NCBI GenBank assembly: GCA_937868025.1
Contig: CALMLJ010000610.1
Coordinates: 1-25,545 of the forward strand
DNA length: 25,545 nucleotides
Reading direction: 5' to 3'
Source: an uncultured Acidimicrobiaceae bacterium
GTDB taxonomy: Bacteria > Actinomycetota > Acidimicrobiia > Acidimicrobiales > Microtrichaceae
Part shown: piece after piece, positions 704-24,144 of the stretch
Layout: every line of letters begins with the position of its first letter
Position numbering within the stretch: the stretch's first letter is position 1
Translations under genes and position numbers: made by a program
Notes under the pieces: generated by a model
Databases searched by the model: none
What the model saw: the letters and a program-made list of their open reading frames with translations, nothing else
What the model was told of the DNA's origin: nothing

Positions 704-709
704 ACGTTA
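704..709 (-). promoter_or_regulatory. Leaderless-type -10 box TAACGT
   Basis: TAACGT on the minus strand lies 8 bases before the ATG at 695. It fits the TANNNT consensus shared by other starts in the window, with slightly longer spacing. Confidence 0.45.
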
Positions 710-719
710 CGCCGGTCGG

Positions 720-767
720 CCCGCTTTCGCGGGTACTTGTCCCCAGCAGGTGATGACAAGTACCCGC
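720..767. terminator. Long palindrome with a competing small hairpin
   Basis: A perfect 13-bp inverted repeat pairs 729-741 with 755-767 around a 13-base loop. A second, shorter stem pairs 720-724 with 729-733 and so shares its arm with the larger stem; both cannot form at once. It lies just past the stop of the acyl-CoA synthetase gene (minus strand) and upstream of the gene starting at 695. It could be a terminator for the P450 operon, an operator, or a REP-like dispersed palindrome. There is no T-run. Confidence 0.55.
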
Positions 768-796
768 AGAACCGGGGGCATTGAGGGCCGAGGGGG

Positions 797-2371
797 TCAG
801 TTGACCTGCCGCTCGATGCCTTCCCAGTAGGGGGCGCGGAGGCGGAACTTCTGCAGCTTGCCGGTGGCCGTGCGCGACAGATCGTCGCGCACCTCGATCG
901 AGGTCGGGCACTTGTAACCGGCGTGGGACGTCCGGCACCACGCGATCAGTTCGGCCTCGACCTCCTCGTGCGACTTCGCCGCGAGGTCGCTTCCCGGCAC
1001 GAGCACCACGAGGGCTTTGATCGTCTCGCCCCATTTGTCCGACGGCACCCCGATCACGCACGCCTCGGCGACGTCGGCGTGGTTGAAGAGCGCGTCCTCG
1101 ACCTCGATCGAGCTCACGTTCTCACCACCCGTGATGATGACGTCCTTCTTGCGGTCGCTGATCGTGAGATACCCCTCGTCGTCGATCGTGCCGCCGTCGC
1201 CGGTGTGGAAGTAGCCGTCGATGATCGCCTCGTCGGTGGCGGCGGGATTGTCCCAGTAGCCGTTGAGGATGTGGTTCGATCGAGCGATCACCTCGCCCTG
1301 GTCGTCGACTTGGAGGTCCACGCCGAGCGCCGGTGCCCCGGCGCGGCCGAGCTTGACGGCGCGTTCCCGCGGCGTCAGATCGTCCCACTCCGAGCGCGAG
1401 CGGCTCATCGTCAACAGCGGCGACGACTCGGTGAGCCCGTAGATCTGGATGAACTCCCACCCGAGCTCGACCTCCACACGCTCGATCGTCCGCGTCGGCG
1501 GCGGAGCGCCGGCCATGACCATGCGCACGCGGTCGCGGCCCGGAACCGGGTCGAACTCGCCGTCGGCGTTCGCCGCCGCGGCGTCGAGGACCATGGCCCC
1601 CACCGCCGGGGCGGCGCACAGGTAGGTGACGCCGTGCCCTTCGATGCGGCGGAGGATCTCGGCGCCGTCGACCTTGCGCAGGACGACGTGTGTGCCGCCC
1701 ATACCGGTCACGCTGAACACCTGGCCCCAGCCGTTGCAGTGGAACATCGGCAGTGTGTGGAGGTACACGTCGCGGTCGTTCACGCTGGCCTGCCAGCCGA
1801 ACACGGCGGCATTCATCCAGAGCTGGCGGTGGGTGCAGTCGACGCCCTTCGGCCGCGCCGTGGTGCCCGACGTGTAGTTGAGCGTCGCCGTCGCGTCCTC
1901 GTCGGGCTCCCAGGCCCGGGGCTCGGTGTCGAACTTGAACAGCACAGCGTCGGATTCGGTGCCGATCACGAACGTGTGGGCGCACTCGATGTCGGCCATC
2001 GCGTCGGCGAGTTCGGGATCGACCAGGAGCACCGTGGCACCGCTCTGCTCGACGATGTAGCGCACCTCCTCGGGATGGAGGCGGAAGTTGATCGGCACGA
2101 GCACCCGACCCCATCCGCACACCCCGAAGAACGCCACGAGCAGGCGCGCCGAGTTGTGACTGACGACGGCGACGCGTTCGCCCACGCCGACGCCCAGCGC
2201 GTCGAGGCCGGCGGCGAGCGCCGCCGCGTGTTCCCCGAACTCGCGGTAGGTCAGCGAACCCCCACCGAGCGGGGCAGCGGGCTGATCGGGCTCATCGATC
2301 ACCGCAGTGCGATCGGGGTACACCCGGACCGCTCGGTCGAGGTAATCACGGACGTTCAGGTGGACCTTCAT
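797..2371 (-). CDS. AMP-dependent acyl-CoA synthetase (FadD/long-chain type)
   Basis: This 524-residue enzyme of the adenylate-forming (ANL) family is expected to activate a carboxylic acid with ATP and join it to CoA. Visible motifs are the P-loop YTSGTTARPKG (166-176), YGLTE (311-315), the TGD of the A7 core (390-392), DRKKD (406-410), GGENVSS (415-421) and the A10 catalytic lysine in TATGK (K505). Length is normal for the family. The start ATG (2369-2371) overlaps the stop of the P450 gene as ATGA, with an AAAGG ribosome site 6 bases upstream, so the two are translationally coupled. Substrate is not readable from sequence; the P450 partner suggests a fatty acid, terpenoid or steroid side chain (inference). 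Confidence 0.92.
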   Translation of the reverse strand: MKVHLNVRDYLDRAVRVYPDRTAVIDEPDQPAAPLGGGSLTYREFGEHAAALAAGLDALGVGVGERVAVVSHNSARLLVAFFGVCGWGRVLVPINFRLHPEEVRYIVEQSGATVLLVDPELADAMADIECAHTFVIGTESDAVLFKFDTEPRAWEPDEDATATLNYTSGTTARPKGVDCTHRQLWMNAAVFGWQASVNDRDVYLHTLPMFHCNGWGQVFSVTGMGGTHVVLRKVDGAEILRRIEGHGVTYLCAAPAVGAMVLDAAAANADGEFDPVPGRDRVRMVMAGAPPPTRTIERVEVELGWEFIQIYGLTESSPLLTMSRSRSEWDDLTPRERAVKLGRAGAPALGVDLQVDDQGEVIARSNHILNGYWDNPAATDEAIIDGYFHTGDGGTIDDEGYLTISDRKKDVIITGGENVSSIEVEDALFNHADVAEACVIGVPSDKWGETIKALVVLVPGSDLAAKSHEEVEAELIAWCRTSHAGYKCPTSIEVRDDLSRTATGKLQKFRLRAPYWEGIERQVN

Positions 2372-3693
2372 GAGGAGCCTTTCGGGACGAGGCGGACGGG
2401 AAGATGGCGGATCGAGGTGTGCTTGTTCGAACGGCCCCATTCGATGGGACCCGTCGACTCGAACTCGTCGACACGATCGGCGAGGACCTCGAACATGACG
2501 GTGAGCTCGCGGCGGGCCAGGGCGGCGCCGAGGCAGTGGTGGATGCCGTGACCGAACGCAAGGTGCGGGTTGGGCGAACGGCCCACGTCGAACCGACCGG
2601 CGTCGGCGAACACCGACTCGTCGCGGTTGGCTGACGGGTACCAGTGCGCCACCTTCTGTCCTGCCGCGATGCGCTGACCGCCGAGCTCCACGTCGCGGGT
2701 TGCGGTGCGGCGGTTGTAGGCGGTCGCACTGGTCCAGCGCAGGATCTCCTCGACCGCTGTCGGGAGCAGCGAGCGATCGTCGACCAGGCGACGCCACTCG
2801 CCGGGCCGTTCGACGAAGGCGTGGACCCCGCCGGCGATCGAGTTGCGGGTCGTCTCGGATCCGGCCGTGAACAGCAGGCTGAAGAACGCCTGCTCCTCCT
2901 CGGGGCTGAGCGGCGGGTCGGCCGCCAGCACCTGCCCGAGCAGGTCGCCGTCGATCGCGGCACCGTGACGCGCCACGGTGGTGCGCCGCTCGGCGATCGT
3001 GGCGTCGCCGTACGCTCGGAGTCCGAGCCCGGCGGCGGCGTACTCGTCGGTGATCTCGGTCAACGACCGGTCGCCGTAGTCGAGGATCGTGCTCGTCCAC
3101 TCGAAGAGCTGGTGACGGTCGGACTGGGGGACCCCCATCAACTGGGCGATCGTCTGCAGCGGAAGCTCGGCCGCGACGTCGGTGAGGACGTCGACCGTGC
3201 CCTCGTCGGAACAGGCGTCGAGCGCGTCGCCGACGAGCTGCTCCGCCAGTGCCCGTAACCAGTCGTCGAGGCGGGCGATGGTGCGCGGGGTGAACGCTGC
3301 CTGCGTGATCGACCGGATCCGCCGGTGGGCCGGCGGGTCGGTCATGTTCATCATCACGCCGGTGACGAACCCGGCGGGCATGTCGACGAGGGTGGTACCG
3401 CCGTTGCCGTCACGACCCGGGCCGGACTCCGAGGAGAACGTCTCGGGGTCTCGCACCACGGTGAGCACGTCGGCGTGGCGCGTGACGCACCAGAACCCCT
3501 CGCCGTCGGGAGTGTTGGGCGTCGGTGGATGCCACCAGACGGGGGCGACGCGGCGGAGCCGGTCGAACGTGTCGTGCGGGAAGCCCTGGGCGAACCGGTC
3601 GAGGTCGCACAGGTCGAGCGTCGCCAGCCATGTCGCGTCGTCGTCCACGTCGGTGGTCCCCACGGCAGGGGAGTCTTGCACCGCCCACGCCAC
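2368..3693 (-). CDS. Cytochrome P450
   Basis: A soluble bacterial-type P450 of about 441 residues, expected to hydroxylate a small or lipidic substrate with electrons from a ferredoxin. Diagnostic parts are the I-helix AGSETT (277-282), the ExxR pair E316/R319 in EEILR, and the heme loop [10 protein letters not shown] with the axial cysteine at 387. The sequence near residue 117 ([11 protein letters not shown]) and the C-terminus resemble the CYP124/125/142 lipid- and sterol-oxidising group, but this is an impression only. The GTG at 3691-3693 gives the longest frame; no ribosome site or -10 box supports it, and GTG codons 5, 11 and 16 are alternatives. It ends in an ATGA overlap with the acyl-CoA synthetase. 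No ferredoxin gene is adjacent. Confidence 0.93.
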
Positions 3694-3729
3694 GGAGTCG
3701 GCTTCGCCGGCGCCGTCTCATGCCAGAAC

Positions 3730-3735
3730 TAGGGT
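3730..3735 (+). promoter_or_regulatory. Leaderless-type -10 box TAGGGT of rph
   Basis: TAGGGT ends exactly 7 bases before the rph ATG at 3743. The same hexamer and spacing recur at 16285 and 18647. No Shine-Dalgarno sequence is present. Confidence 0.65.
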
Positions 3736-3742
3736 CGCGCCC

Positions 3743-4483
3743 ATGAGACCAGACGGCCGCGCCAACGACGAACTCCGCCCCATCACCATCGAACGTGACT
3801 TCACGACCACCTCCCACGGCTCGGTCCTCGTGTCGTTCGGCGACACGAAGGTGCTCTGCACGGCCACGGTCGAACTCGACGTGCCGCGGTGGATGAAGAA
3901 CACCGGCAAGGGATGGGTGACCTCGGAGTACTCCATGCTTCCCGGTTCGTCGCCGGACCGCATCGGTCGGGAGCGCAAGGGGCCCAAGGGCCGCACGCAC
4001 GAGATCGAGCGGCTGATCGGCCGGTCGCTGCGGGCCGTCGTCGACATGAAGGCGCTCGGTGAGCGCCAGATCCACCTCGACTGCGACGTGTTGCAGGCCG
4101 ACGGCGGCACTCGCACCGCATCGATCTCCGGCGCGTGGATCGCGCTGCACGACGCCTGCACCCGCATGGTGCAGGCCGGGCTCGTCAGCCGACACCCGGT
4201 GCTCGACCACTGCGCCGCCGTCTCGGTCGGCATCATCGAGGGGGAGCCCCGCCTCGACCTGCCCTACGTCGAGGACTCCCGCGCCGAGACCGACATGAAC
4301 GTCGTGATGACCGGCGCGGGTGGCCTCGTCGAGGTGCAGGGCACCGCCGAGGGTGTGCCGTTCAGCCGTGACGAGCTGACGTCGTTGCTCGACCTCGCGA
4401 CGGGTGGCATCACCGAGATCGTCACGCTGCAACGCGAGATGGTCGCCGAGGCGCCCTCGGCCCGCTCGTTCGACAAGCGCTGA
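3743..4483 (+). CDS. rph: Ribonuclease PH
   Basis: This 246-residue phosphorolytic 3'-5' exoribonuclease trims tRNA 3' ends using phosphate and normally forms a hexamer. It begins with the classic RPDGR (2-6). It carries [20 protein letters not shown] (82-101), which includes the phosphate-binding arginine region, and [15 protein letters not shown] (118-132). It then has the metal-site segment around DSRAETDMN. The length matches the family (about 240). The ATG at 3743 follows a TAGGGT-N7 leaderless promoter signature. It is the first gene of an rph-rdgB-galT run; rdgB begins 13 bases after its stop. The rph-rdgB pairing is common in bacteria. Confidence 0.96.
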
Positions 4484-4496
4484 TCCGGAGCGTCCG

Positions 4497-5111
4497 GTGG
4501 CTCTCGCCGTCGCTGCTGCGACCGCCAACCCCAAGAAGTTGCGGGAGATCGAGGAGATCTTCGCGTCGGCCGTCGGTGACGGCGTGGAGCTGTTGCCGCG
4601 GCCGGCGGAGCTGCCCGATGTCGTCGAGGACGGCGACACGCTCGCGGCGAACGCCGAGCTGAAGGCCCGGGCGGTGGCCGACCACGTCGACGGTGCGGCG
4701 ATCGCCGACGACACCGGCCTCGAGGTCGACGCGCTCGACGGAGCGCCGGGGGTGCGTTCGGCGCGGTTCGCCGGTGAGGACGCAGTCGATGCCGACAACG
4801 TCACGCTCCTCCTCGAACGCCTCGAAGAAGTCGACTCGACGCATCGGACGGCCCGGTTCCGCACGGTCATCTGCCTCGCCCGTCCGGGACGTGAGCCGTT
4901 GTTCGCCGAGGGAGTGTGCGAGGGCCGCATCGCGCGCTCCCCGAGCGGTGACGGGGGGTTCGGGTACGACCCCGTGTTCGTGCCCGACGACGGCGACGGG
5001 CGCACCTTCGCCCAGATGGACGCGTCGGAGAAGCACGTGATCAGCCACCGGGGCCGGGCGATGGTCGCTGCGGCCGCGTTGCTCCGGGAGTTCCTCACCG
5101 ATGAGCGGTGA
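4497..5111 (+). CDS. rdgB: RdgB/HAM1 family XTP/dITP pyrophosphatase
   Basis: This 204-residue nucleoside-triphosphate pyrophosphatase removes deaminated purine nucleotides (XTP, dITP, ITP) from the nucleotide pool. The N-terminal TANPKKL supplies the T-x-N-x-x-K signature (T9, N11, K14). ADDTGLEVDAL (70-80) is the metal and catalytic segment, GFGYDP (154-159) and SHRGRA (183-188) bind base and phosphates. The start is the GTG at 4497, preceded by GGAG (4487-4490) at 6 bases and placing the conserved TANPKK at the usual distance from the N-terminus; a longer frame upstream lies inside rph. Its end overlaps galT by 11 bases. Confidence 0.95.
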   Translation: MALAVAAATANPKKLREIEEIFASAVGDGVELLPRPAELPDVVEDGDTLAANAELKARAVADHVDGAAIADDTGLEVDALDGAPGVRSARFAGEDAVDADNVTLLLERLEEVDSTHRTARFRTVICLARPGREPLFAEGVCEGRIARSPSGDGGFGYDPVFVPDDGDGRTFAQMDASEKHVISHRGRAMVAAAALLREFLTDER

Positions 5112-6042
5112 GCTGCGGCTCGATCCGCTGACGGGCAACTGGGTCAGCATCGTCGGGAACCGCCAGGCGCGCCCGAACCTGCCGGCGACCGGCTGCCCGT
5201 TCTGTGTCGGTGGCCTCGAGGCGCCGGAGCCCTACGACACCAAGGCGTTCGTGAACCGGTGGCCCGCCTACGCCCCCGGCGAGCCGGTCGATCTCGCGGC
5301 GGCTGCGGCGACGGGACGCGCCGCGGCGGTCGGCGCTGCGGAGGTGATCCTCTACTCCCCGGTGCACGACGGCTCGCTCGGGTCGCTGGGCGTGGCGCAG
5401 GTCCGCAAGGTCGTCGACCTGTGGGCCGAGCGCACCGCGGCACTCCTGGCGCGTCCCGAAGTCGAGTACGTCCTCGTGTTCGAGAGCCGCGGCGCCGAGG
5501 TGGGGGCGACGATCCATCATCCCCACGGGCAGCTCTACGCGTTCCCCTTCGTGCCGCCGCTGCCGGCGACCGAGGCCGGGCGCTCCCGCGACATCGGTTG
5601 TGTGGTGTGCTCGTCGATCACGACGGAGCTCGACGTCGCTGAGCGTGTGGTTGTCGACGACGGCGAGTGGGCGGCCTGGGTGCCGTTCGCGTCGGGCTAT
5701 CCGTACGGCGTCGACCTGGCGCCGCGTCGGCACGTGGGTTCACTGGCCGATCTCGACGACGCCGGACGCGACTCGCTGGCCCGGATCCTCACCGATGTGC
5801 TGGGCCGTTACGACCGACTCTGGGCGGACGACCCGAAGCGCAGCCCCATCTTCCCGTACCTGATGTGGATCCATCAGGCTCCCGCGAATCACGACGGCGA
5901 GTACCACGTGCACGTGCACCTGGCGCCACCGCAGCGGGCTCCCGGCGTGGCTCGCTACGTCGCTGCGGGCGAAGCCGGCGCCGGCACGTTGTCGAATCCC
6001 ATCGTTCCCGAGGACGCTGCGGCCACGCTGCGGCGGGCCTGA
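5101..6042 (+). CDS. galT: Galactose-1-phosphate uridylyltransferase
   Basis: A 313-residue HIT-superfamily nucleotidyltransferase of the Leloir pathway, exchanging UMP between UDP-glucose and galactose-1-phosphate. It has the zinc-binding CPFC (C32, C35), the active-site HHPHGQ (139-144) with the expected nucleophilic histidine at 142, and the second histidine cluster HVHVH (269-273). The tail GEAGAGTLSNPIVPE matches the family. It is somewhat shorter than E. coli GalT. The ATG at 5101 lies inside the 3' end of rdgB, so translation is coupled. No galK or galE is visible nearby, so a related sugar-phosphate or nucleotide-transferring substrate is possible. Confidence 0.9.
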   Translation: MSGELRLDPLTGNWVSIVGNRQARPNLPATGCPFCVGGLEAPEPYDTKAFVNRWPAYAPGEPVDLAAAAATGRAAAVGAAEVILYSPVHDGSLGSLGVAQVRKVVDLWAERTAALLARPEVEYVLVFESRGAEVGATIHHPHGQLYAFPFVPPLPATEAGRSRDIGCVVCSSITTELDVAERVVVDDGEWAAWVPFASGYPYGVDLAPRRHVGSLADLDDAGRDSLARILTDVLGRYDRLWADDPKRSPIFPYLMWIHQAPANHDGEYHVHVHLAPPQRAPGVARYVAAGEAGAGTLSNPIVPEDAAATLRRA

Positions 6043-6063
6043 CCAGACGCCTGTTCTCGCCGG

Positions 6064-6081
6064 CGCCGCCGCACGGTGGCG
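6064..6081. terminator. Weak hairpin between convergent galT and aldolase-like gene
   Basis: A 7-bp stem (one G-T pair) with a GCAC loop fills the end of the 39-base gap between the two convergent genes. There is no T-run. It is a candidate bidirectional terminator by position only. Confidence 0.35.
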
Positions 6082-7103
6082 TCACCAGTTGCGCAGATCG
6101 ATCGGCCAGGTGTCGACGACCTCTCCGTCGCGAACGACGTGGACCCGCTCGTGCAACGCCATCGTGGGGTCGATGTGCGCGGGCCACATCTCGACCCGCT
6201 GTCCGATCGTGATGCTGCCGGGCGGGTCGGGCACGATCGTCGCGTGTTCGTCAGAGGTGAAGAACAAGGTGTGGGGGCCGACGACGGTCGGCTCGCCGTG
6301 GTCCATGCCGAACGCTTTGAGGCCGGCGTCGGCGACGACGAACCCGGCCTCGTCGTTGCGAGAGATGACCGTCGCCCACACCGAGAGTGCCTGGCGGAAG
6401 GGCAGGTCGAGCTGCTGGTAAGCGGTGTCCATGAGCAGGTACGAACCCGCTTGCACCTCACCGGCCCACGTGTGGAGGTCGTAGGTGCCGGTGCCGCCGG
6501 CCGAGGTGACGTCGCCGCCGACGTCGCCGTGGGCCCGGCGCAACTGGGCCATCGACAGCTCGACCTGCTCGGCGCGCCAGACCCGGTCGGTGTTGCCGAC
6601 GACGTGGCCCTCGTACCGCGCACCTCGATGCCCGCGGCGCGGGCGGCGTCGGCGAGCGCTCCGGCCCGTTCGGGCGCGATGCCACAGCGGGGGAGCCCGA
6701 CGTTGACGTCGACCAGCACCTCGAGGGGGCCGTCGCGCTGCGCGTCGACGACGGCGGCGAGCGTCTCCTCGGAGTCGATCGCGATCGTGATCCGCGAGTC
6801 GGTTGCCGCCCCGACGGAGGCGAGGTGCCGGAGCCGATCGACGTCGAGGGTCTCGTTGGCGAGCAGCAGGTCGACGCCGAGGCCGGCCTCGGCCATGCCG
6901 ACCATCTCCCGCACCGTGGCGCAGCAGAACGAGTCGGATCCGGAGCGGACCGCGGCGTAGCGCGCCAACTCGGTGCACTTGTGGGCCTTGACGTGTGACC
7001 GCAGGGCGGCTCCGGGTCGAACCGTCGCCATGGTGTCGACGTTGTAGTCGAGCTGGTCGAGGCCGATGACAAGTGCCGGGGTGGGCAGGTCGTGGGGCGT
7101 CAT
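6082..7103 (-). pseudogene. D-threonine aldolase / D-serine dehydratase-like PLP protein, frameshifted
   Basis: Two frames together make one fold-III PLP enzyme (alanine-racemase-like barrel) of about 340 residues. The N-terminal part (163 residues from the ATG at 7101-7103) contains LPTPALVI and SHVKAHKC, where K39 is the expected PLP lysine. The C-terminal part (177 residues, from about 6615) begins YEGHVVGNTD. It ends with PAHIDPTMALHERV, whose H-x-D matches the metal-binding pair of D-threonine aldolases. The frames meet at 6615-6620, between GIEVRG and YEGH, where relatives usually have a few extra residues; adding 1 (or 10) bases would restore one frame. Conservation on both sides suggests a very recent mutation or a sequencing error. 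A TAGCGT box lies 6 bases before the start. Confidence 0.85.
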
Positions 7104-7109
7104 CGCCGC

Positions 7110-7115
7110 ACGCTA
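7110..7115 (-). promoter_or_regulatory. Leaderless-type -10 box TAGCGT
   Basis: TAGCGT on the minus strand ends 6 bases before the ATG at 7103, within the 23-base gap after the glycosylase gene. It may give the aldolase-like gene its own promoter. The identical hexamer and spacing precede serB. Confidence 0.45.
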
Positions 7116-7126
7116 TCGCCGCGCCG

Positions 7127-7922: not shown

Positions 7923-7933
7923 AGTATTACGGT
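7923..7933. promoter_or_regulatory. Back-to-back -10 boxes between nei and the RDD gene
   Basis: On the minus strand AATACT (7923-7928) lies 7 bases before the nei ATG. On the plus strand TACGGT (7928-7933) could start a leader of about 40 bases for the RDD gene, which has its own AAGGAG ribosome site at 7971-7976. The two boxes share one base, so the two polymerases would compete. Confidence 0.4.
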
Positions 7934-7981: not shown

Positions 7982-8950
7982 ATGAGCTCGCTGCCGCCAC
8001 CGCCGGAGGACCTGCCCGAGCCGACGGGCCAGCCGGTACCGGGGCTCGGCCATCCCACGGGTGCGATTTCGGGGTCGTGGCCCGAGCCGCCGGTCGACGC
8101 GCCGTCGCCGTTCGCTCCGCCCGGCGGTGGCGCGTTCGCTCCGCCCGGCGGTGGCGCGTTCGCTCCGCCCGGCGGTGGCGCGTTCGCTCCGCCCGGCGGT
8201 GGGTCGCCCGAGACCGGGCAGGGGTCGGTCCCGCCGCAGTTCCCGCCCCCGCAGCCGCCACAGTTCCCGCCGCCCCAGTTCCCACCGATCGCCGGGCAGT
8301 ACGCGGCCCCTCCCGGGCCTGGGCTGCCCGCTCCACCGGGAGGCTGGATCCAACCCGAGGCCTACGGCGAGGCTCCACCTCCGCACCTCCCACCACCCGG
8401 CGGACCCGGCGGCCCAGGCGGCCCAGGCGCTCCCTACGGTGGGGGCTACCAGGCCTATCGGCCCGGCATGCGCGCCCCGAGCTACGCCGGGTTCTGGTCC
8501 CGTCTCGGGGCGAACTTCATCGACAGCCTGATCGTGGGTGTGGTTCCGGCGATCCTCTACGGCGTCGGCATCGCGACGTCCCCGCAGGACGCGTGCACCA
8601 CGACCTACGACTCGAGCGGCGGGGTGTACACGTCGTGCGGCGCCGATCTCGGGGCTGTCGGTCCGTACCTCATCGCAGCGTTCCTCGCATACGTCCTGCT
8701 GTCGTTCTTCGTCATCGTCCGCCCCATCGGTCTCACCGGTCAGTCGATCGGGAGCCGGGCCGCCGGGGTCCGGGTCATCGACTCCGCCACGGGCCGACCG
8801 ATCGGGGTCGGCCGGTCGTTCGGACGGTTCCTGGCAGCGCTGTTCATCTCCCGCTGGTGCTGCAACCTGGGGTTCCTGTGGATGCTGTGGGACGACCGAA
8901 AGCAGACGTGGCACGACAAGCTCGCCACGGCGATCGTGGTCGACGCGTGA
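7982..8950 (+). CDS. RDD-family membrane protein with long proline-rich N-terminus
   Basis: This 322-residue protein has a disordered Pro/Gly-rich N-terminal half (1-165) and an RDD membrane domain (about 168-322). The domain shows the family arginine and aspartate in SRLGANFID (R174, D181), predicted membrane helices near 178-197, 228-247 and 284-304, and the closing WHDKLATAIVV. A short loop between helices 1 and 2 has two cysteines (C205, C219) that could form an extracytoplasmic disulphide. Residues 44-74 are about four copies of FAPPGGGA. The start is supported by AAGGAG at 7971-7976, 5 bases before the ATG. RDD proteins are poorly understood; transport or ion exchange has been suggested for some. 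The next gene starts inside its stop codon. Confidence 0.9.
   Translation: MSSLPPPPEDLPEPTGQPVPGLGHPTGAISGSWPEPPVDAPSPFAPPGGGAFAPPGGGAFAPPGGGAFAPPGGGSPETGQGSVPPQFPPPQPPQFPPPQFPPIAGQYAAPPGPGLPAPPGGWIQPEAYGEAPPPHLPPPGGPGGPGGPGAPYGGGYQAYRPGMRAPSYAGFWSRLGANFIDSLIVGVVPAILYGVGIATSPQDACTTTYDSSGGVYTSCGADLGAVGPYLIAAFLAYVLLSFFVIVRPIGLTGQSIGSRAAGVRVIDSATGRPIGVGRSFGRFLAALFISRWCCNLGFLWMLWDDRKQTWHDKLATAIVVDA
8111..8203 (+). repeat. 24-bp coding minisatellite (FAPPGGGA units)
   Basis: Three perfect 24-base copies (8111-8134, 8135-8158, 8159-8182) are followed by a fourth that diverges after about 20 bases. The unit is a multiple of three, so copy-number change keeps the frame of the RDD gene. Perfect identity at the DNA level indicates recent expansion by slippage. 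Confidence 0.95.
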
Positions 8951-11476: not shown

Positions 11477-11615
11477 GGGTGCTCCTCTGTGGATCGGGCG
11501 AAGTCGGCTCGATGACCTGGTCCGTACTTCAGCACAGTTGTGCCTGCTCCGTCGGGGCGCGCCGTCGAACGCCGGCGGAACCTCGTCGGCGGTCAGCGCA
11601 GCTAACCTGACCGGA
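11477..11615. promoter_or_regulatory. Divergent usp/clpP promoter region
   Basis: The region holds the clpP box TAACCT (11603-11608), 7 bases before the clpP ATG, and a 5-2-5 inverted repeat GCACAGTTGTGC (11532-11543) that could be an operator. I looked for a ClgR-type site and saw no convincing one. The usp promoter is not obvious. Confidence 0.5.
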
Positions 11616-12793: not shown

Positions 12794-12799
12794 AACCTA
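12794..12799 (-). promoter_or_regulatory. Probable -10 box TAGGTT of the CAP-domain gene
   Basis: TAGGTT on the minus strand lies 36 bases upstream of the ATG, leaving room for a short leader that carries GGAGGAG. This is a contrast to the leaderless starts elsewhere in the window. Confidence 0.4.
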
Positions 12800-13987: not shown

Positions 13988-13993
13988 AAACTA
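13988..13993 (-). promoter_or_regulatory. Leaderless-type -10 box TAGTTT of rpe
   Basis: TAGTTT on the minus strand ends 6 bases before the rpe ATG. The tandem repeat array begins 1 base beyond it. Confidence 0.55.
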
Positions 13994-13994: not shown

Positions 13995-14063
13995 CGCTGA
14001 CCGCACTGGCGGCTCGCCGCTGACCGCACTGGCGGCTCGCCGCTGACCGCACTGGCGGCTCGC
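13995..14063. repeat. Three perfect 23-bp tandem repeats in a divergent promoter
   Basis: Copies at 13995-14017, 14018-14040 and 14041-14063 are identical. Each copy junction forms a 5-2-5 palindrome GCGGCTCGCCGC (14009-14020, 14032-14043, 14055-14066). The array fills nearly all of the space between the -10 boxes of rpe and prmA and so must contain both -35 regions. A 23-base period does not keep a reading frame, arguing against a coding role. There are no spacers, so it is not a CRISPR. Confidence 0.97.
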
Positions 14064-14068
14064 CGCCG

Positions 14069-14074
14069 TACCCT
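14069..14074 (+). promoter_or_regulatory. Leaderless-type -10 box TACCCT of prmA
   Basis: TACCCT ends 7 bases before the GTG at 14082, with no ribosome site between. It lies 5 bases past the end of the 23-bp repeat array. Confidence 0.55.
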
Positions 14075-16168: not shown

Positions 16169-16174
16169 ACGCTA
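16169..16174 (-). promoter_or_regulatory. Leaderless-type -10 box TAGCGT of serB
   Basis: TAGCGT on the minus strand ends 6 bases before the serB GTG, supporting that start. The remaining divergent region (16175-16284) also contains the 10-base palindrome GGTGATCACC (16210-16219), a possible operator. Confidence 0.5.
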
Positions 16175-16284: not shown

Positions 16285-16290
16285 TAGGGT
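16285..16290 (+). promoter_or_regulatory. Leaderless-type -10 box TAGGGT
   Basis: TAGGGT ends exactly 7 bases before the GTG at 16298, identical in sequence and spacing to rph and to the gene at 18660. Confidence 0.65.
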
Positions 16291-18639: not shown

Positions 18640-18646
18640 GGCGGCG

Positions 18647-18652
18647 TAGGGT
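18647..18652 (+). promoter_or_regulatory. Leaderless-type -10 box TAGGGT
   Basis: TAGGGT ends exactly 7 bases before the ATG at 18660, within the 20-base gap after the preceding gene. It suggests that the three-gene lipoprotein operon has its own promoter. Confidence 0.6.
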
Positions 18653-18659
18653 TCCGCCC

Positions 18660-19478
18660 ATGTCGTCACGCCGCCGATTCGTCGCGCTCGTGAGCGCTGT
18701 GGTGCTGGTGGCTGCTGGTTGCAACGGGGGCGGTGGCGACTCGGCCTCGACGACCGTGGCACCGGGTGCAGCGGGGGTCAGCGAGTTGTCGTTCGAGATC
18801 GTGAGCCGGTCTCCCCACGACACCGCAGCGTTCACCGAGGGCTTCACCTTCGGCGACGGCGGGCGCCTGTTCGAGAGCCTCGGGTTGGAGGGCAACTCCT
18901 CGGTCCGCGAGGTCGATCCCACGACGGGAGCGGTCATGGGGGAGTCGCGCCTCGACCCCGCGCAGTTCGGCGAAGGCCTCGCGGTGGGTCCCGACGGGCT
19001 CGTGCAACTGACGTGGAAGGACGGCGTCGCCCACCGCTGGTCGATCGACGACCTCACCGCAACGGGCGTGTTCGAGTACGAGGGCGAGGGCTGGGGCCTC
19101 ACGTTCGACGGCGAGGAGTTCGTCCAGAGCGACGGCTCGCCGACCCTCACCCGCCGCGACGCGGCGACGTTCGAACCGACCGCCACCGTCGACGTCACCC
19201 GCGGCGGCGATCCCGTCGACGAGATCAACGAACTCGAGTGGGTGGACGGGGTGATCTGGGCGAACGTGTGGCACTCCGACGAGATCCTCCGCATCGACCC
19301 GTCGACCGGTCACGTGACCGGCGTGATCGACGCGTCGGCGCTGTGGGAGGCCCCGGAGCGGACCGCCGAGATGACCCTCAACGGCATCGCCCATCGGCCC
19401 GGCGACCCGCCGAACCGACTGTGGCTGACCGGAAAGAACTGGCCCGAGATGTTCGAGGTCGAGGTGACGGAGCGATGA
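18660..19478 (+). CDS. Glutaminyl-peptide cyclotransferase, lipoprotein
   Basis: 272 residues. A signal peptide ends in VAAGC (C21 likely lipidated), then a Gly/Ser/Thr linker and a five-bladed beta-propeller of the plant/bacterial glutamine cyclotransferase family (Glu_cyclase_2). Signature segments are FTEGFTF, FGEGL, GWGLTFDGEEFVQSDGS, INELEWVDGVIWANVW, IDPSTGHVTGVIDAS and LNGIAHRP followed by LWLTGKNWPEMFEVE. The enzyme converts N-terminal glutamine of exported proteins to pyroglutamate and would act on the outer face of the membrane. It overlaps the next lipoprotein gene by ATGA. Confidence 0.92.
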   Translation: MSSRRRFVALVSAVVLVAAGCNGGGGDSASTTVAPGAAGVSELSFEIVSRSPHDTAAFTEGFTFGDGGRLFESLGLEGNSSVREVDPTTGAVMGESRLDPAQFGEGLAVGPDGLVQLTWKDGVAHRWSIDDLTATGVFEYEGEGWGLTFDGEEFVQSDGSPTLTRRDAATFEPTATVDVTRGGDPVDEINELEWVDGVIWANVWHSDEILRIDPSTGHVTGVIDASALWEAPERTAEMTLNGIAHRPGDPPNRLWLTGKNWPEMFEVEVTER

Positions 19479-19951
19479 GCAAACGCAGGTCGAGGATCGT
19501 GGTCGTAGCGTTGGCACTCGTCGGCGCGGTCGGGTGCGGTGGCACCGACTACGAGTCGTTGCACCGCGGCGAGTGCCTGCCGAGCACGGCGAAGGTGGTG
19601 GGGGAGCGTGAGCCCGCCCCGCCCACGGTCGATTGCTCCGAACCGCACCGCTACCAGGTCTACGGCGTGACCCAACTCGACGGACCCCGCACCTATCCGG
19701 GCGAGGAGGTGGTCGACCAGGAGGCGGAGCATCAGTGTTTCCTGCTGTTCGAGCCGAACCTCGGCTACCCCGCGGCGCAGATGCCCGACGACGTGAAGGT
19801 GGTCTACCTTCAGCCCACCGAATCCAGCTGGAACGACCAGGCCGACCGCGAGGTGGAGTGCCTGCTGATCTACGACGACGACACCACGGGGGACGCAGTG
19901 ACCGAGAGCAACGAGCCGGCGACCGAGACCACGACGGGGGGAGACGCGTGA
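19475..19951 (+). CDS. Septum_form-like small lipoprotein
   Basis: 158 residues. The N-terminus MSKRRSRIVVVALALVGAVGC gives a signal peptide with C21 as probable lipid anchor. The mature part has HRGECL, VDCSEPHRYQVYGV and a later C...C pair (HQCFLLF, EVECLLIY), the pattern of the Septum_form (PF13845-type) domain, whose members are exported actinobacterial proteins with disulphides. The C-terminus is a Thr/Glu-rich tail. The ATG overlaps the cyclotransferase stop. The mature protein after lipidation begins with Cys, so it is not itself an obvious pyroglutamate substrate. Confidence 0.82.
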   Translation: MSKRRSRIVVVALALVGAVGCGGTDYESLHRGECLPSTAKVVGEREPAPPTVDCSEPHRYQVYGVTQLDGPRTYPGEEVVDQEAEHQCFLLFEPNLGYPAAQMPDDVKVVYLQPTESSWNDQADREVECLLIYDDDTTGDAVTESNEPATETTTGGDA

Positions 19952-20829
19952 CCGACATGAAGATCGGTTGGTCGCTCCCCACCATGATCGCCGGGATCGA
20001 CGGCCCCACCGTGCTCGAGTGGTGTCGGCGCATCGAGGCGGACGGCTATTCGACGATCGGGTTCGGCGAGCGCATCGCCTACCAGAACCTCGAGCTGTTC
20101 TCGGTGCTGGCGGCGGCCGCTGCCGTGACCGAGCGGGTGCGCCTGATCTCCACCATCGTGGTGCTGCCCATGCACGCCGAGGCGTGGGTGGCCAAGCAAT
20201 CGGCGACCCTCGATGTGCTCTCCGGCGGTCGGTACACGCTCGGCGTCGGGGTCGGCGGACGCAACGAGGACTACCGAACGCTGGACTCGCCGTTCGACCA
20301 CCGGTTCGATCGGCTCGACCACCAGGTCGACCGCATTCGTTCGTTGTGGGCCCAGGAGTCGCCGGGCGAGGGCCTCGACCCCGTCGGTCCCAAGCCGGTC
20401 CAGGAGCACCTGCCGATCCTGAGCGGTGCGATGGGTCCGAAGTCGATCGCTCGATCGGCGCGCTGGGCGGACGGGATCGCCGGGTTCGAGATGGACCCGT
20501 CGGCCGACGCCCTCGGGCGAAGTGTTGCTGCGATGGACGCGGCGTGGGAGGCGGCGGGCCGTGACACCGCCCCCTACCGCATGACGAGCTTCTGGTGCGC
20601 GCTCGGCCCCGATGCCGAGAGCCAGTTGCGCTTGTACGCGGCGCGCTACCTGTCGGTGTTCGGCGCCGAGTTCGCCGACGCGCTGGCGGCGTCGTGCACC
20701 GCGGCGGGGCCCGACGCGATCCGCCGCGCTGTCGACGACGCCCGCGCCGCCGGTTTCGACGAGATCCAACTCGTGCCGACGACGACCGACATCGCCGAAC
20801 TCGACCGGATGGCCGAGGTGCTTGCCTGA
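19948..20829 (+). CDS. LLM-class (F420-dependent type) oxidoreductase
   Basis: A 293-residue luciferase-like TIM-barrel protein. It begins MKIGWSLPT, then has WCRRIEADGYSTIGFGERI, VRLISTIVVLPMHAEAWVAKQSATLDVLSGGRYTLGVGVGG (about 64-105) and PILSGAMGPKSIARSARWADGI, all typical of the actinobacterial group that uses coenzyme F420. The bound cofactor could instead be FMN. The GTG at 19948 overlaps the upstream stop (GTGA) with GGGGGGAG just before it; the ATG three codons later is an alternative. It is the last gene of the operon and is closed by a hairpin. The substrate is unknown. Confidence 0.9.
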   Translation: MTDMKIGWSLPTMIAGIDGPTVLEWCRRIEADGYSTIGFGERIAYQNLELFSVLAAAAAVTERVRLISTIVVLPMHAEAWVAKQSATLDVLSGGRYTLGVGVGGRNEDYRTLDSPFDHRFDRLDHQVDRIRSLWAQESPGEGLDPVGPKPVQEHLPILSGAMGPKSIARSARWADGIAGFEMDPSADALGRSVAAMDAAWEAAGRDTAPYRMTSFWCALGPDAESQLRLYAARYLSVFGAEFADALAASCTAAGPDAIRRAVDDARAAGFDEIQLVPTTTDIAELDRMAEVLA

Positions 20830-20881
20830 CGCGGCCGAGTGCGATGGACGCCGGGTCAGCCGGACCCGGGCCCACCACGAC

Positions 20882-20910
20882 GAACGACCGAGGCCAGGCC
20901 TCGGTCGTTC
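20882..20910. terminator. Perfect 14-bp hairpin between LLM and csp genes
   Basis: Arms 20882-20895 and 20897-20910 are exact reverse complements around a single A. It lies 52 bases after the oxidoreductase stop and 37 bases past the csp stop, so it can serve both convergent genes. No T-run. Confidence 0.8.
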
Positions 20911-20947
20911 ATCTCGATCTCTCGGTTGAGAAGCGTCTCGTCGGTGG

Positions 20948-21148
20948 TCAGATGACCTTCACGTTCTGGGCTTCCTCGCCCTTGCGGCCCGGAGCGACGT
21001 CGAACTCGACGGCCTGGCCTTCCTCGAGTGAGCGGTAGCCGCTTCCTTCGATGTTGGAGTAGTGGACGAACACATCATCGCCTCCCTCACGTGAGATGAA
21101 GCCGTAGCCCTTCTCAGTGTTGAAGAACTTCACGGTCCCTGTTGCCAA
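20948..21148 (-). CDS. cspA: Cold-shock domain protein
   Basis: A 66-residue single cold-shock domain that binds single-stranded RNA or DNA and melts secondary structure. RNP1 is KGYGFI (13-18) and RNP2 is VFVHY (26-30). The start is unusual: the only in-frame start giving the conserved [10 protein letters not shown]-terminus is a TTG (21146-21148), preceded by the purine run AGAGAAGAGAA. The nearby upstream ATG (out of frame) would encode an unrelated short peptide. A TACACT box (21203-21208) would give a leader of about 45-50 bases, in keeping with the regulated leaders of csp genes. Confidence 0.94.
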
Positions 21149-21202
21149 CGGATTCTCTTCTCTCGCATTGAACGAGCCCTTGTGGCCCGCTCGAATGAGG
21201 TC

Positions 21203-21239
21203 AGTGTAGGCAGCCTTTCCCGCCCGGTGGGCGGGAAAG
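21203..21239 (-). promoter_or_regulatory. csp promoter with an inverted repeat over the -35 region
   Basis: TACACT on the minus strand (21203-21208) is a good -10 box. A perfect 11-bp inverted repeat (21215-21225 with 21229-21239, 3-base loop) covers the spacer and the -35 position. This is the layout of an operator. It also lies just upstream of the divergent SNF2 gene promoter (TATGGT at 21273-21278). Confidence 0.5.
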
Positions 21240-21272
21240 TTCGGACCTCGAACACCTGTTCGTGTCGCGCGC

Positions 21273-21278
21273 TATGGT
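21273..21278 (+). promoter_or_regulatory. Leaderless-type -10 box TATGGT of the SNF2 gene
   Basis: TATGGT ends 7 bases before the ATG at 21286. It selects this ATG over the in-frame GTG at 21262 and the ATG at 21274, neither of which has a ribosome site. Confidence 0.55.
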
Positions 21279-21285
21279 GTCCGTC

Positions 21286-24144
21286 ATGGCAGACGGGGCC
21301 ACCGATCGGTGTGACGACTGGACGGCGGCGGTCACGTTCGTGCCGGCCGATCCGCCGCGGGCGTCGAGTCTCGCGTGCTGGCGGCCCGACGCGGCCACGG
21401 GCCTGTTCGCCGACGATCCGGGTGCCGACGCGATGCTCGACGTCGTGGTGCCTCGCGGCGACCGGCCGCGTCGTGAGTCGGTGGCCGTCCGGCAGGTCAC
21501 CCTGGCCGACGCCATCGTGCCGCTGCTCGAGCTCGACGGTGCTGCGCCCGGGGTGCCGCCGGCGTCGGTCTCGGCGCGATGGTGGTCGGCGGCGACGGTC
21601 GTTGCGCTCGACCTGATCGCCCGCGGTCATCTCATCCCGGCCGTGACGACGGGCGGGTGGGACGCCTGGCAGATCGACCCCCTCGAACCGGCCGACCACG
21701 CCGTGCTGGCTCGGCTCGTGGCGGCATGCCCACCCGAGGCGCATGCGATCGCAGCACCGTCGGGCCGGTCCGAGGTGGCCGACCCGGCGTGGCTGTTGCG
21801 ATCGTTCCTCGACGCCGTGGCCGACGCGTTCGTCCGTACGGCCGCGGCGCCGCTCGCGCTGGGTTCGCACCTGTTCGCCGGCGCAACCCCGTCGCCGGCC
21901 GAGCCGCTCCGACCGTGGATCGGTGCAGCCTTCGGCCACCTCACCAGCGCCACCCGCCTCGGGCTCCGCGTCGACCTCGTACAGGAACGCAGCGACGACG
22001 AGACCACCGCCCGGTTCGACGTCGTCCTCCAGCTGCGCAGCACGCAGGATCCGTCATTGGTCGTCGACGCCGACGAGTTGGCCGACTGCCCGCCGATGCT
22101 CCGGGCGCGTCTCGGTGCCGGCGCCGGAGCCGAGTTGTTGGTCGCCCTCAGCCGAGCGGCTCGGTGGTGGCCGACGCTCGACCGGGTGCTCGACCACGAC
22201 GAACTCCCCGGTCGCGTCGCGGTCGACGTGGACGAGATCGAAGATCTCATCGAGGTCGCGGAAGACCTCGAGGCCGCCGGTGTCGAGGTGCTGTGGCCGG
22301 CGTCGTTCGTCGCCGATCTCCGACCCCGCCTCGTCGCGTCGGCGCCTCCTCCCGTCGCCGGCAAGGAGCCGATGGTGGGGTTGGGCACGCTGCTCGACTT
22401 CCGGTGGGAGGTCCTGTGCGACGGGGTGCCACTCGACGACATCGAGCTCGACGCGCTCGCCGACGCCAAGCGCGGCCTCGTCTGGATGCGGGGCCGTTGG
22501 GTGCGCACCGACGCCGAGGTGATGCGCCGCATCCGCCAGGTCCCGAGTGGCCTCGACGGCCCATCGGGCCTGGCGGCAGCCCTGGCCGGCGAGGTGGTCG
22601 ACGACGACGGGGCCACGGTCGAGGTCGTCGCCGCCGGCTTCGCCGACACCCTGCGCCTGCGGCTCGGCGAGCTGGCGGGTCTCCGCGAGGAGGCCGAGCC
22701 CGAGGGGCTGGCCGCGACGCTCCGCCCGTATCAGCGACGTGGCGTGGCGTGGATGGCCGACCTGTGCCGGGCCGGTCTCGGGGGAGTCCTGGCCGACGAC
22801 ATGGGGCTCGGCAAGACCGTGCAGGTCATCGCCCTCCACCTGGTCCTGGCGCGATCCCGCCCGATCGCTGCGCCGACCCTGGTCGTGTGTCCCACGTCGG
22901 TGCTCGGCAACTGGGCGCGGGAGATCGCCCGGTTCGCTCCCGACGTCCCGGTCCGCAAGCTGTCGGGTCCCGATCGAAGCCTCGCCGGCCTGGCGTCCGA
23001 CGAGATCGTGCTCGTCACCTACGGCGTGATGCGGCGCATGGCCGACGACCTGGCCGAGGTCGGGTGGGGTGTGGTCGTGGCCGACGAGGCGCAGTCGATC
23101 AAGAACCCCCGGGCGCGTACGTCCCGGGCGATCCGTAGCATCCCCGCCGACGCCCGGATCGCCCTCACCGGTACCCCGGTCGAGAACCGCCTGAGCGAGC
23201 TCTGGGCCCTGCTCGACTGGACGACGCCGGGCCTCCTCGGCAGCGCCGAGCACTTCCGCACCCAGTTCGCGGTGCCGATCGAGCGTCGGGGCGTTCGCAC
23301 GACGTCCCAGCGACTGTCCCTCCTCACCAAGCCGTTCATGTTGCGGCGCCGCAAGACCGACGACGGCGTCGCCCCCGACCTGCCGAGCCGTACCCAGCAC
23401 GATGTGGTGGTGCCGCTCAGCGTCGAGCAACTGTCGATGTACGAGGCGCTGGTGCGGGAGTCACTGTTCCAGATCAACGGATCCGAGGGCGCCACCCGCG
23501 TGGGCATGGTGTTCCGGCTGCTGACGGCGCTCAAGCAGATCGCCAACCACCCCGGTCAGTACCTGCACGAGATCGACGGGCCGCTCGACGGTCGGTCGGG
23601 CAAGCTCGACGCCACTGTGGAGCTGGTCGGTGCCGCCGTCGAGGGCGAGGAGCGTGTGCTGGTCTTCTCGCAGTACGTCGAGATGTGCCATCTGCTCCGG
23701 CGCCGGTTCGCCGAGGAGGGCATCGACGCGGAGGTGCTGCACGGTGGCCTGTCGGCCGACGCCCGCGACCGCCTCGTCGACCGGTTCCAGGCCGGCGACA
23801 TTCCCGTGCTCGTCATCTCCCTCAAGGCCGGCGGCACCGGCCTCAACCTGACCGCCGCCACCCAGGTCGTCCACTTCGACCGGTGGTGGAACCCCGCCGT
23901 CGAGGACCAGGCGACCGACCGGGCGTGGCGCATCGGCCAGACCCGACCGGTGGTCGTCCACCGCATGATCTCGGAGGGCACGATCGACGAACGCATCGCC
24001 GAGATGATCGAACGCAAGCGTTCGCTCGCCGAGAGTGTGGTCGGTGGCGGCGAGACGTGGATCGCCGATCTCGACGACCGCCAACTCGCCGAGCTGGTGA
24101 CACTCCGGTCGGCGGCCCACTTCCGTTCGGGGGTCCTGCTGTGA
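21286..24144 (+). CDS. SNF2-family DEAD/DEAH ATPase (HelZ/RapA-like)
   Basis: 952 residues. An N-terminal region of about 360 residues without recognised motifs leads into the bacterial SNF2-associated domain (LLDFRWEVLCDG from 369, ALADAKRGLVWMRGRWV). The SF2 ATPase core follows: Walker A DMGLGKT with K510, CPTSVLGNWAREI, Walker B DEAQ (600-603), LTGTPVENRLSELWALLDW, VLVFSQY (from 792), GGTGLNLTAATQVVHFDRWWNPAVEDQATDRAWRIGQ with D865 and motif VI R879-Q885. Such proteins translocate on double-stranded DNA and remodel protein-DNA complexes; the bacterial role is largely unknown. The SWIM-protein gene starts inside its stop codon, a pairing also seen in mycobacteria next to HelZ. Confidence 0.95.
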   Translation: MADGATDRCDDWTAAVTFVPADPPRASSLACWRPDAATGLFADDPGADAMLDVVVPRGDRPRRESVAVRQVTLADAIVPLLELDGAAPGVPPASVSARWWSAATVVALDLIARGHLIPAVTTGGWDAWQIDPLEPADHAVLARLVAACPPEAHAIAAPSGRSEVADPAWLLRSFLDAVADAFVRTAAAPLALGSHLFAGATPSPAEPLRPWIGAAFGHLTSATRLGLRVDLVQERSDDETTARFDVVLQLRSTQDPSLVVDADELADCPPMLRARLGAGAGAELLVALSRAARWWPTLDRVLDHDELPGRVAVDVDEIEDLIEVAEDLEAAGVEVLWPASFVADLRPRLVASAPPPVAGKEPMVGLGTLLDFRWEVLCDGVPLDDIELDALADAKRGLVWMRGRWVRTDAEVMRRIRQVPSGLDGPSGLAAALAGEVVDDDGATVEVVAAGFADTLRLRLGELAGLREEAEPEGLAATLRPYQRRGVAWMADLCRAGLGGVLADDMGLGKTVQVIALHLVLARSRPIAAPTLVVCPTSVLGNWAREIARFAPDVPVRKLSGPDRSLAGLASDEIVLVTYGVMRRMADDLAEVGWGVVVADEAQSIKNPRARTSRAIRSIPADARIALTGTPVENRLSELWALLDWTTPGLLGSAEHFRTQFAVPIERRGVRTTSQRLSLLTKPFMLRRRKTDDGVAPDLPSRTQHDVVVPLSVEQLSMYEALVRESLFQINGSEGATRVGMVFRLLTALKQIANHPGQYLHEIDGPLDGRSGKLDATVELVGAAVEGEERVLVFSQYVEMCHLLRRRFAEEGIDAEVLHGGLSADARDRLVDRFQAGDIPVLVISLKAGGTGLNLTAATQVVHFDRWWNPAVEDQATDRAWRIGQTRPVVVHRMISEGTIDERIAEMIERKRSLAESVVGGGETWIADLDDRQLAELVTLRSAAHFRSGVLL

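What the first reader, a model, noticed from the sequence alone, without database searches (positions are those of the whole stretch)
704..21288. Window-wide leaderless promoter signature TANNNT-N6-8-start codon
Six genes have a TANNNT hexamer ending exactly 7 bases before the start codon: 3730 (TAGGGT), 11603 (TAACCT), 14069 (TACCCT), 16285 (TAGGGT), 18647 (TAGGGT) and 21273 (TATGGT). Four more on the minus strand have spacing 6 or 8: 7110 (TAGCGT), 13988 (TAGTTT), 16169 (TAGCGT) and 704 (TAACGT). A further weak box (AATACT) lies 7 bases before nei. None of these genes has a clear Shine-Dalgarno site. By contrast usp, the CAP gene, the RDD gene, csp and operon-internal genes such as rdgB do. 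At this base composition a TANNNT match at a fixed position is rare (my rough estimate is below 1% per site), so this is not chance. It implies that most lead genes here are transcribed from the first base of the start codon and are translated without a leader.
Basis: partly seen in the sequence, partly recalled or inferred. Interest (0 to 1): 0.75.

Follow-up and report, generated by a model that had tools for sequence, protein, structure and literature searches.

The report
Leaderless-gene promoter signature in an actinobacterium
Ten genes in this stretch carry the same short motif (TANNNT) 6 to 8 bases before their start codon and no clear ribosome-binding site, so they are likely transcribed from about the first base of the start codon and translated without a leader, a habit already described for actinobacteria; in related genomes the same motif peaks at gene starts and is about three times rarer than expected inside genes.

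Summary
In the window 10 of 1,479 ATG/GTG triplets on both strands have such a box at 6-8 bases, and they are these ten gene starts. With starts called blind to the motif, TANNNT at 6-8 ranks first of all three-letter patterns (84 of 412 lead genes, 6.2 expected); proteobacterial lead genes show no peak. Orthologs often keep the box (clpP 23 of 35, trmA 18 of 24, serB 14 of 19; but rph 3 of 37). Shine-Dalgarno matches of 5+ bases: 2 of 101 box-led orthologs against 28 of 95 others. Inside genes the hexamer falls to 0.36 of expectation, at the exact -10 geometry. Best reading: a -10 element placed so that transcription likely starts at the start codon, the 'TA-led' leaderless genes that Zheng 2011 reports in 86 of 89 actinobacterial genomes. 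No transcript end was mapped. Real and well supported, but a known kind; the strong in-gene purge is the less expected part.

The parts
704..709 (-). TAACGT box, 8 bases before ATG 695 (gene 129-695, no Pfam match)
   Evidence: no relative in the loci held
3730..3735 (+). TAGGGT box, 7 bases before ATG 3743 of RNase PH (rph)
   Evidence: TAACGT at spacing 8 in the two closest relatives L093, L094; box in 3 of 37 orthologs in all
7110..7115 (-). TAGCGT box, 6 bases before ATG 7103 of an alanine-racemase-like gene
   Evidence: box in 10 of 19 orthologs
7923..7928 (-). weak box AATACT, 7 bases before ATG 7915 of nei-like DNA glycosylase
   Evidence: AATACT in 2 and CAGACT in 11 of 18 relatives at about the same place
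7928..7933 (+). TACGGT 48 bases upstream of ATG 7982 (RDD protein), which has AAGGAG: likely leadered contrast
11603..11608 (+). TAACCT box, 7 bases before ATG 11616 of clpP
   Evidence: box in 23 of 35 orthologs
12794..12799 (-). TAGGTT 36 bases upstream of ATG 12757 (CAP protein), which has AGGAG: likely leadered contrast
13988..13993 (-). TAGTTT box, 6 bases before ATG 13981 of ribulose-phosphate 3-epimerase (rpe)
   Evidence: box in 13 of 33 orthologs
14069..14074 (+). TACCCT box, 7 bases before GTG 14082 of prmA-like methyltransferase
   Evidence: box in 8 of 15 orthologs
16169..16174 (-). TAGCGT box, 6 bases before GTG 16162 of serB-like phosphatase (ACT-ACT-HAD)
   Evidence: box in 14 of 19 orthologs
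16285..16290 (+). TAGGGT box, 7 bases before GTG 16298 of a TRAM-domain RNA methyltransferase (trmA/rumA-like)
   Evidence: box in 18 of 24 orthologs
18647..18652 (+). TAGGGT box, 7 bases before ATG 18660 of glutamine cyclotransferase-like gene, 20 bases after the stop of the gene before it
   Evidence: box in only 2 of 12 orthologs
21203..21208 (-). TACACT 54 bases upstream of the likely TTG start 21148 of the cold-shock protein: likely leadered contrast
21273..21278 (+). TATGGT box, 7 bases before ATG 21286 of SNF2-family helicase
   Evidence: box in 2 of 2 orthologs

Best explanation
The ten TANNNT hexamers lie 6-8 bases before ten start codons that lack a clear Shine-Dalgarno site, and are likely sigma-70-type -10 elements that would start transcription at or within a base or two of the start codon, so that these genes are predicted to make leaderless mRNAs. 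In the predicted mechanism the housekeeping sigma factor recognises the -10 hexamer with no need for a fixed -35 box; RNA polymerase starts on the purine of ATG or GTG; and the ribosome, probably a 70S ribosome with initiator tRNA, takes the 5'-terminal AUG/GUG directly. The same hexamer placed 36-54 bases upstream would give ordinary leadered genes (RDD and CAP with a Shine-Dalgarno site; csp with a TTG start). Shown here: positions, conservation, exclusion of Shine-Dalgarno sites, and depletion of the hexamer in coding DNA. Inferred: promoter activity, transcript ends, ribosome route.
For: Positional peak with motif-blind starts: G020 26 of 146 lead genes at spacing 6-8 against 2.0 expected, and zero at spacings 0-5 and 10-14. 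Scan of all patterns of three fixed letters over 412 Acidimicrobiia lead genes: TANNNT at 6-8 ranks first, 84 against 6.2. Proteobacterial control 8 of 184 lead genes against 6.2 expected. Orthologs: clpP 23/35, trmA 18/24, serB 14/19, prmA 8/15, rpe 13/33, alaR-like 10/19; the mean over ten decoy motifs is 0.6 to 2.2 per family. Shine-Dalgarno of 5 or more bases in 2 of 101 box-led orthologs against 28 of 95 others in eight families, Fisher p = 3e-8. clpP natural experiment: in the orthologs L084, L211, L213 and L216 TANNNT lies further upstream and a GGAG-type site stands before an ATG. TTG start codons: 0 of 142 box-led starts against 13 of 455 other starts in the Acidimicrobiia sets, p = 0.016. 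No -35 signal, and G or CG just before the hexamer, as described for the mapped M. tuberculosis promoters (PMC3898074, passages). Inside genes, given TA, T at the sixth position is 439 against 1,233 expected (0.36) while T at the other positions 3-13 is 0.93-1.04; the depletion holds in all three phases on both strands.
Against: No transcript 5' end is mapped in this organism or a close relative. rph orthologs mostly lack the box (3 of 37) and 14 of 34 without it have a Shine-Dalgarno match instead, so box-leading is not a fixed trait of a gene. The glutamine cyclotransferase box is kept in 2 of 12 orthologs and nei has a strict TANNNT at 6-8 in 1 of 18. In prmA the same box at the control distance 26-28 turns up in 4 of 15. 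Two genes that I count as leadered or operon-internal also show boxes in some orthologs (CAP 2 of 13, thiolase 1 of 2). With a looser 4-base criterion the exclusion of Shine-Dalgarno sites is weaker (G020 lead genes 9 of 36 box-led against 40 of 108 others). G019 has few box-led genes (11 of 206 lead genes) and a weaker in-gene depletion (0.71, with TANNNA 0.68). Rows within a family are partly close relatives and not independent.
Confidence: 0.9

Rival explanations
1. The genes are ordinary leadered genes whose start codons were placed too far upstream; the true starts lie downstream of a short leader.
For: In GC-rich genomes start calls are uncertain; my blind caller put the clpP start nine codons downstream and the SNF2 start four codons upstream.
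Against: rph aligns from residue 1 in most relatives listed; nei starts with MPEG, and the proline at position 2 is the catalytic residue of this family (recalled), so that start can hardly move. Box-led orthologs almost never have a Shine-Dalgarno site of 5 or more bases at the box-led start (2 of 101), and where the clpP box is further away a Shine-Dalgarno site stands before an ATG.
Confidence: 0.05
2. The AT-rich box is a non-canonical ribosome-binding signal on a leadered mRNA rather than a promoter element.
For: GeneMarkS-2 authors report bacteria with AT-rich non-SD ribosome-binding sites (PMC9581028, passages).
Against: The same hexamer sits 36-54 bases upstream of three genes in this window that look leadered; it is depleted in coding DNA on both strands and in all phases, which fits a DNA-level signal and not an mRNA signal; it equals the -10 motif found at mapped M. 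tuberculosis start sites (PMC3898074, passages).
Confidence: 0.04
3. The pattern is a chance effect of base composition or of choosing starts to fit the motif.
Against: Blind starts reproduce it in the window and in relatives; decoy motifs of the same letters reach far lower counts; proteobacterial lead genes show no peak.
Confidence: 0.01

Closest known systems
TA-led (leaderless) genes of Actinobacteria, Zheng et al. 2011 (PMC3160421; abstract, one section and passages read)
   Same: TANNNT about 12 bases upstream of the start (counted from the first T; here 12-14), high-GC form with an uninformative middle, around 20% of genes; here 47 of 220 called genes in G020 before subtracting decoys (decoy mean 5.6).
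   Different: Spacing in the Acidimicrobiia sampled is spread over 6, 7 and 8 (34, 20 and 30 lead genes summed over four sets; 8 at spacing 9); the paper's main text does not name Acidimicrobiia.
Leaderless transcriptome of Mycobacterium tuberculosis, Cortes et al. 2013 (PMC3898074; passages read)
   Same: TANNNT -10, no conserved -35, CGN often before the hexamer, transcript start overlapping the start codon in 26% of genes with a primary start site, ATG and GTG both used.
   Different: There transcript ends are mapped; here they are inferred.
Mycobacterial leaderless translation, Shell et al. 2015 (PMC4633059; passages read)
   Same: ATG or GTG, not TTG, works at the 5' end; box-led starts here are 83 ATG, 59 GTG, 0 TTG of 142.
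   Different: No translation data here.
Selection against spurious -10 motifs, Froula and Francino 2007 (PMC1939733; abstract, one section and passages read)
   Same: -10 motifs are under-represented in coding DNA of many bacteria (24 of 42 genomes).
   Different: Here the depletion is measured with amino acids, codon usage and TA phase held fixed; it is 0.27-0.45 in nine Acidimicrobiia sets (the window among them) and 0.50-0.99 in the other Actinobacteria and Proteobacteria sampled, but 0.71 in G019.

Membership tests
TA-led leaderless genes of Actinobacteria | TANNNT with its first T about 12 bases before the start codon | tested here: met
   10 window genes at 12-14 bases; peak in samples of relatives
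TA-led leaderless genes of Actinobacteria | no Shine-Dalgarno site before the start codon | tested here: met
   0 of 10 in the window with 5 or more matching bases; 2 of 101 box-led orthologs against 28 of 95 others; weaker with a 4-base criterion
TA-led leaderless genes of Actinobacteria | start codon is ATG or GTG, not TTG | tested here: met
   0 TTG in 142 box-led starts; 13 of 455 others; p = 0.016
TA-led leaderless genes of Actinobacteria | promoter of the -10-only type without a conserved -35 | tested here: met
   information profile of 130 aligned boxes, no signal upstream beyond a weak G/CG just before the hexamer
TA-led leaderless genes of Actinobacteria | mapped transcript 5' end within 5 bases of the start codon | not testable with these tools
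   no RNA data; needs dRNA-seq
TA-led leaderless genes of Actinobacteria | ribosome engages the 5'-terminal start codon | not testable with these tools
   needs reporter or ribosome profiling
selection against spurious -10 motifs in coding DNA | hexamer rarer in coding DNA than its composition predicts | tested here: met
   439 against 1,233 at the sixth position and no depletion of T at the other positions 3-13; 8 against 49 in the window under synonymous shuffling

The most novel reading that the evidence does not exclude
In Acidimicrobiia one three-letter hexamer (TANNNT) is by itself a sufficient promoter and, by its distance to the start codon, also sets the translation mode: at 6-8 bases leaderless, at about 35 or more bases leadered, as a rule with a Shine-Dalgarno site.
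Probability: 0.45. Interest if true: 0.5.

Novelty: new member of a known kind. Interest (0 to 1): 0.35.

Why it matters
Leaderless starts matter for gene annotation in a large, mostly uncultured actinobacterial class (class assignment inferred): the hexamer at 6-8 bases points to start codons that composition alone misplaces (clpP and SNF2 here). The in-gene avoidance profile reads out the -10 geometry from DNA alone, without RNA data, and could be used to gauge how self-sufficient the -10 element is in any uncultured lineage. Otherwise the finding extends a published actinobacterial habit to another genome.

Tried and rejected
Motif-blind start calls in G019 gave few box-led genes (11 of 206 lead genes). 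The other lead starts there were mostly GTG (153 of 195), so its start calls may be poor, but its in-gene depletion is also weaker (0.71); left unresolved. A conserved -35 box was sought and not found. The idea that the depletion is aimed at spurious leaderless proteins was tested by asking whether in-gene TANNNT followed by ATG/GTG at 6-8 is rarer still; it is not (39 of 439, against 386 of 4,756 for TANNNG), so it more likely concerns transcription as such. That TA avoidance across codon borders explains the depletion was rejected by conditioning on TA phase; without that step TANNNA is low too (0.50-0.66 in the window, G020 and mixed sets). I first took enrichment of NANACT at spacing 6 as a sign of weaker boxes, but that pattern includes TANACT; the cleaner sign is CANNNT, 16 of 412 at spacing 6. 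Rfam found no RNA family in the window. Paper searches: leaderless with Acidimicrobi (2 papers: one on anti-Shine-Dalgarno types, passages read; one on sterol degradation, listing only), leaderless with Ilumatobacter (none), transcription start site with Acidimicrobi and promoter (2 papers, listing only), leaderless genes with metagenome terms (listing of 12 of 225), and avoidance of promoter motifs (listings; one paper then read in part). I saw no mapped transcript ends for the class in these, but subscription papers are not held. Rows dropped before counts: ortholog rows with N near the start, with identical start regions, with the alignment beginning after residue 15, with a score under a quarter of the family's best, or within 110 bases of a contig end; called genes with a low coding score, near contig ends or without an upstream neighbour. 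L187 is in the mixed set but, by oversight, not as one of the named sets; one search does include it. The gene 129-695 found no relative in the loci held, so it has no ortholog test.
Full report
What was claimed.

Check. The ten boxes are present at the stated coordinates and spacings. The window has 22 TANNNT on both strands (52 expected by dinucleotide shuffling). Ten of them stand 6-8 bases before an ATG or GTG; of 1,479 such triplets on both strands and in all frames ten have a box there, and these are the ten gene starts. Three more lie 48, 36 and 54 bases before the starts of the RDD, CAP and cold-shock genes (the csp distance is corrected by one codon because the table was made for 21145 and the likely start is TTG 21148). 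So 13 of 22 sit at gene fronts. The lead genes as I count them are 17 (starts 695, 3693, 3743, 7103, 7915, 7982, 10909, 11476, 11616, 12757, 13981, 14082, 16162, 16298, 18660, 21148, 21286), of which ten have the box. Genes were named with Pfam.

Which organism. No genome of the window is held. I treat it as an Acidimicrobiia-like actinobacterium (inference).

Positional test in relatives. A gene caller that uses codon usage and a start-codon preference only, never upstream sequence, was run on 264 kb of G020, 40 kb of G023, 400 kb of G019 and other loci. In G020, 26 of 146 lead genes have TANNNT at spacing 6-8 (2.0 expected from spacings 15-44), with none at spacings 0-5 and 10-14. G023: 10 of 22; Acidimicrobiia loci around rph: 22 of 78; further relatives: 26 of 170; G019: 8 of 211 against 0.3 expected; Nocardioides and other Actinobacteria: 8 of 90; GC-rich Proteobacteria: 8 of 184 against 6.2 expected, no peak (their operon-internal genes: 3 of 87 against 0.4). 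A scan of all patterns of three fixed letters over 412 lead genes put TANNNT at 6-8 first (84 against 6.2), and over 164 operon-internal genes put it first too (16 against 0.5), followed by GAG and GGA, the Shine-Dalgarno core. Allowing nearby in-frame starts, 36 of 144 lead genes (decoy motifs mean 4.2) and 11 of 76 internal genes (decoys 1.4) of G020 are box-led, close to the roughly 20% reported for Actinobacteria.

Orthologs. Boxes at 6-8 bases are kept in clpP 23 of 35, trmA 18 of 24, serB 14 of 19, prmA 8 of 15, rpe 13 of 33, alaR-like 10 of 19, SNF2 2 of 2; in few of glutamine cyclotransferase 2 of 12, rph 3 of 37, nei 1 of 18; also CAP 2 of 13 and thiolase 1 of 2, and rdgB, operon-internal here, 0 of 39. 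Means over ten decoy motifs are 0.6-2.2 for the first six; the box at the control distances 16-18 and 26-28 is found in 0 to 2 per family except prmA (4 of 15 at 26-28). Outside the class, rph has the box in 7 of 69 (decoys 1 to 6). Box-led orthologs (spacing 6-9) have a Shine-Dalgarno match of 5 or more bases in 2 of 101 cases, the others in 28 of 95 (p = 3e-8; related rows are not independent). The consensus used fits the anti-Shine-Dalgarno tail given for Acidimicrobiia in PMC10783764 (passages). In four clpP orthologs (L084, L211, L213, L216) TANNNT lies further upstream and a GGAG-type site stands before an ATG (in L216 the script picked a later codon and counted none), as expected if the box sets the transcript start. 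In rph the window and its two closest relatives are box-led, while many others show a Shine-Dalgarno site (14 of 34 not box-led): the mode appears to switch over evolution. nei is a special case: the window and 2 of 18 relatives have AATACT, 11 of 18 have CAGACT, 3 of 18 have TANNNT at 7-9 bases, 2 have neither. CANNNT is enriched at spacing 6 in general (16 of 412 against 1 to 7 at the other spacings up to 39), so the leaderless class may extend a little beyond strict TANNNT.

Anatomy. 130 aligned boxes, some of them chance hits, show no -35 signal and a weak G or CG just before the hexamer; M. tuberculosis promoters are described in a similar way (PMC3898074, passages). Start codons of 142 box-led genes are 83 ATG, 59 GTG and no TTG, which fits the finding that ATG or GTG, not TTG or CTG, works at the 5' end in mycobacteria (PMC4633059, passages).

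The hexamer inside genes. With protein sequence and codon usage held fixed, TANNNT in coding DNA is 8 against 49 in the window, 166 against 801 in G020 and 259 against 1,351 in other Acidimicrobiia. Because TA across codon borders is itself avoided, I conditioned on TA and its phase: T at the sixth position is 0.36 of expectation (439 against 1,233 in 643 genes), T at the other positions from 3 to 13 is 0.93-1.04, and the only other marked dip is A at the third position (0.61). The depletion holds in each phase and on each strand (0.21-0.47) and in each of nine sets including the window (0.27-0.45); G019 is 0.71 with TANNNA 0.68. Other groups, from small samples: Nocardioides G057 0.50, other Nocardioides 0.99 (46 against 46), Arenivirga 0.67 (TANNNA 0.69), Brevibacterium 0.76, Arcanobacterium 0.92, Zoogloea 0.80, other Proteobacteria 0.81 and 0.89. 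This does not depend on any start call and suggests that the hexamer itself is costly inside genes, as expected of a self-sufficient promoter element. In-gene hexamers followed by ATG/GTG at 6-8 are not further depleted (39 of 439).

Compared with what is known. Zheng et al. 2011 (PMC3160421; abstract, one section and passages) define TA-led genes by TANNNT about 12 bases upstream and find them in 86 of 89 actinobacterial genomes at around 20%. Leaderless transcription in up to 40% of transcripts was predicted for 21.6% of bacterial species by the GeneMarkS-2 authors, as told in PMC9581028 (passages). Under-representation of -10 motifs in coding DNA is known from PMC1939733. The window is therefore a clean new case of a known kind. 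What I did not see in my searches is a transcript map for Acidimicrobiia or this depletion measured there.

Verdict. Observation confirmed, interpretation supported, novelty low, interest moderate because of the strength of the avoidance signal.

Noticed in passing
window 13995-14066: Three perfect tandem copies of a 23-base unit (CGCTGACCGCACTGGCGGCTCGC) fill the gap between the divergent rpe and prmA boxes; no other copy in the window at up to 2 mismatches.
   Followed up: partly
window 5955-7103 (-): The alanine-racemase-like gene seems frame-shifted: Pfam finds the N-terminal domain in the frame starting at 7103, while codon usage favours another frame for 6082-6552. Sequencing error or decay cannot be told apart.
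   Followed up: partly
nei orthologs L343-L348, L192, L351, L352, L354, L356: CAGACT instead of TANNNT stands 5-8 bases before the nei start in 11 of 18 relatives: a conserved deviant -10-like box for one DNA-repair gene.
   Followed up: partly
loci L143-L162 (G019): A relative with 72% identical RNase PH has few box-led genes (11 of 206 lead genes) and a weak in-gene depletion (0.71): possible partial loss of the habit, or poor start calls at very high GC.
   Followed up: partly
Acidimicrobiia against Nocardioides loci: With blind starts the box is spread over spacings 6, 7, 8 and 9 in Acidimicrobiia (34, 20, 30, 8 lead genes over four sets) but concentrated at 6 in Nocardioides G057 (10 of 13), hinting at a different start-site preference.
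   Followed up: no
window 8109-8202: A 24-base unit repeated 3.9 times without mismatch inside the RDD gene; by reading, it codes a Pro/Gly-rich repeat.
   Followed up: no
   Followed up: partly
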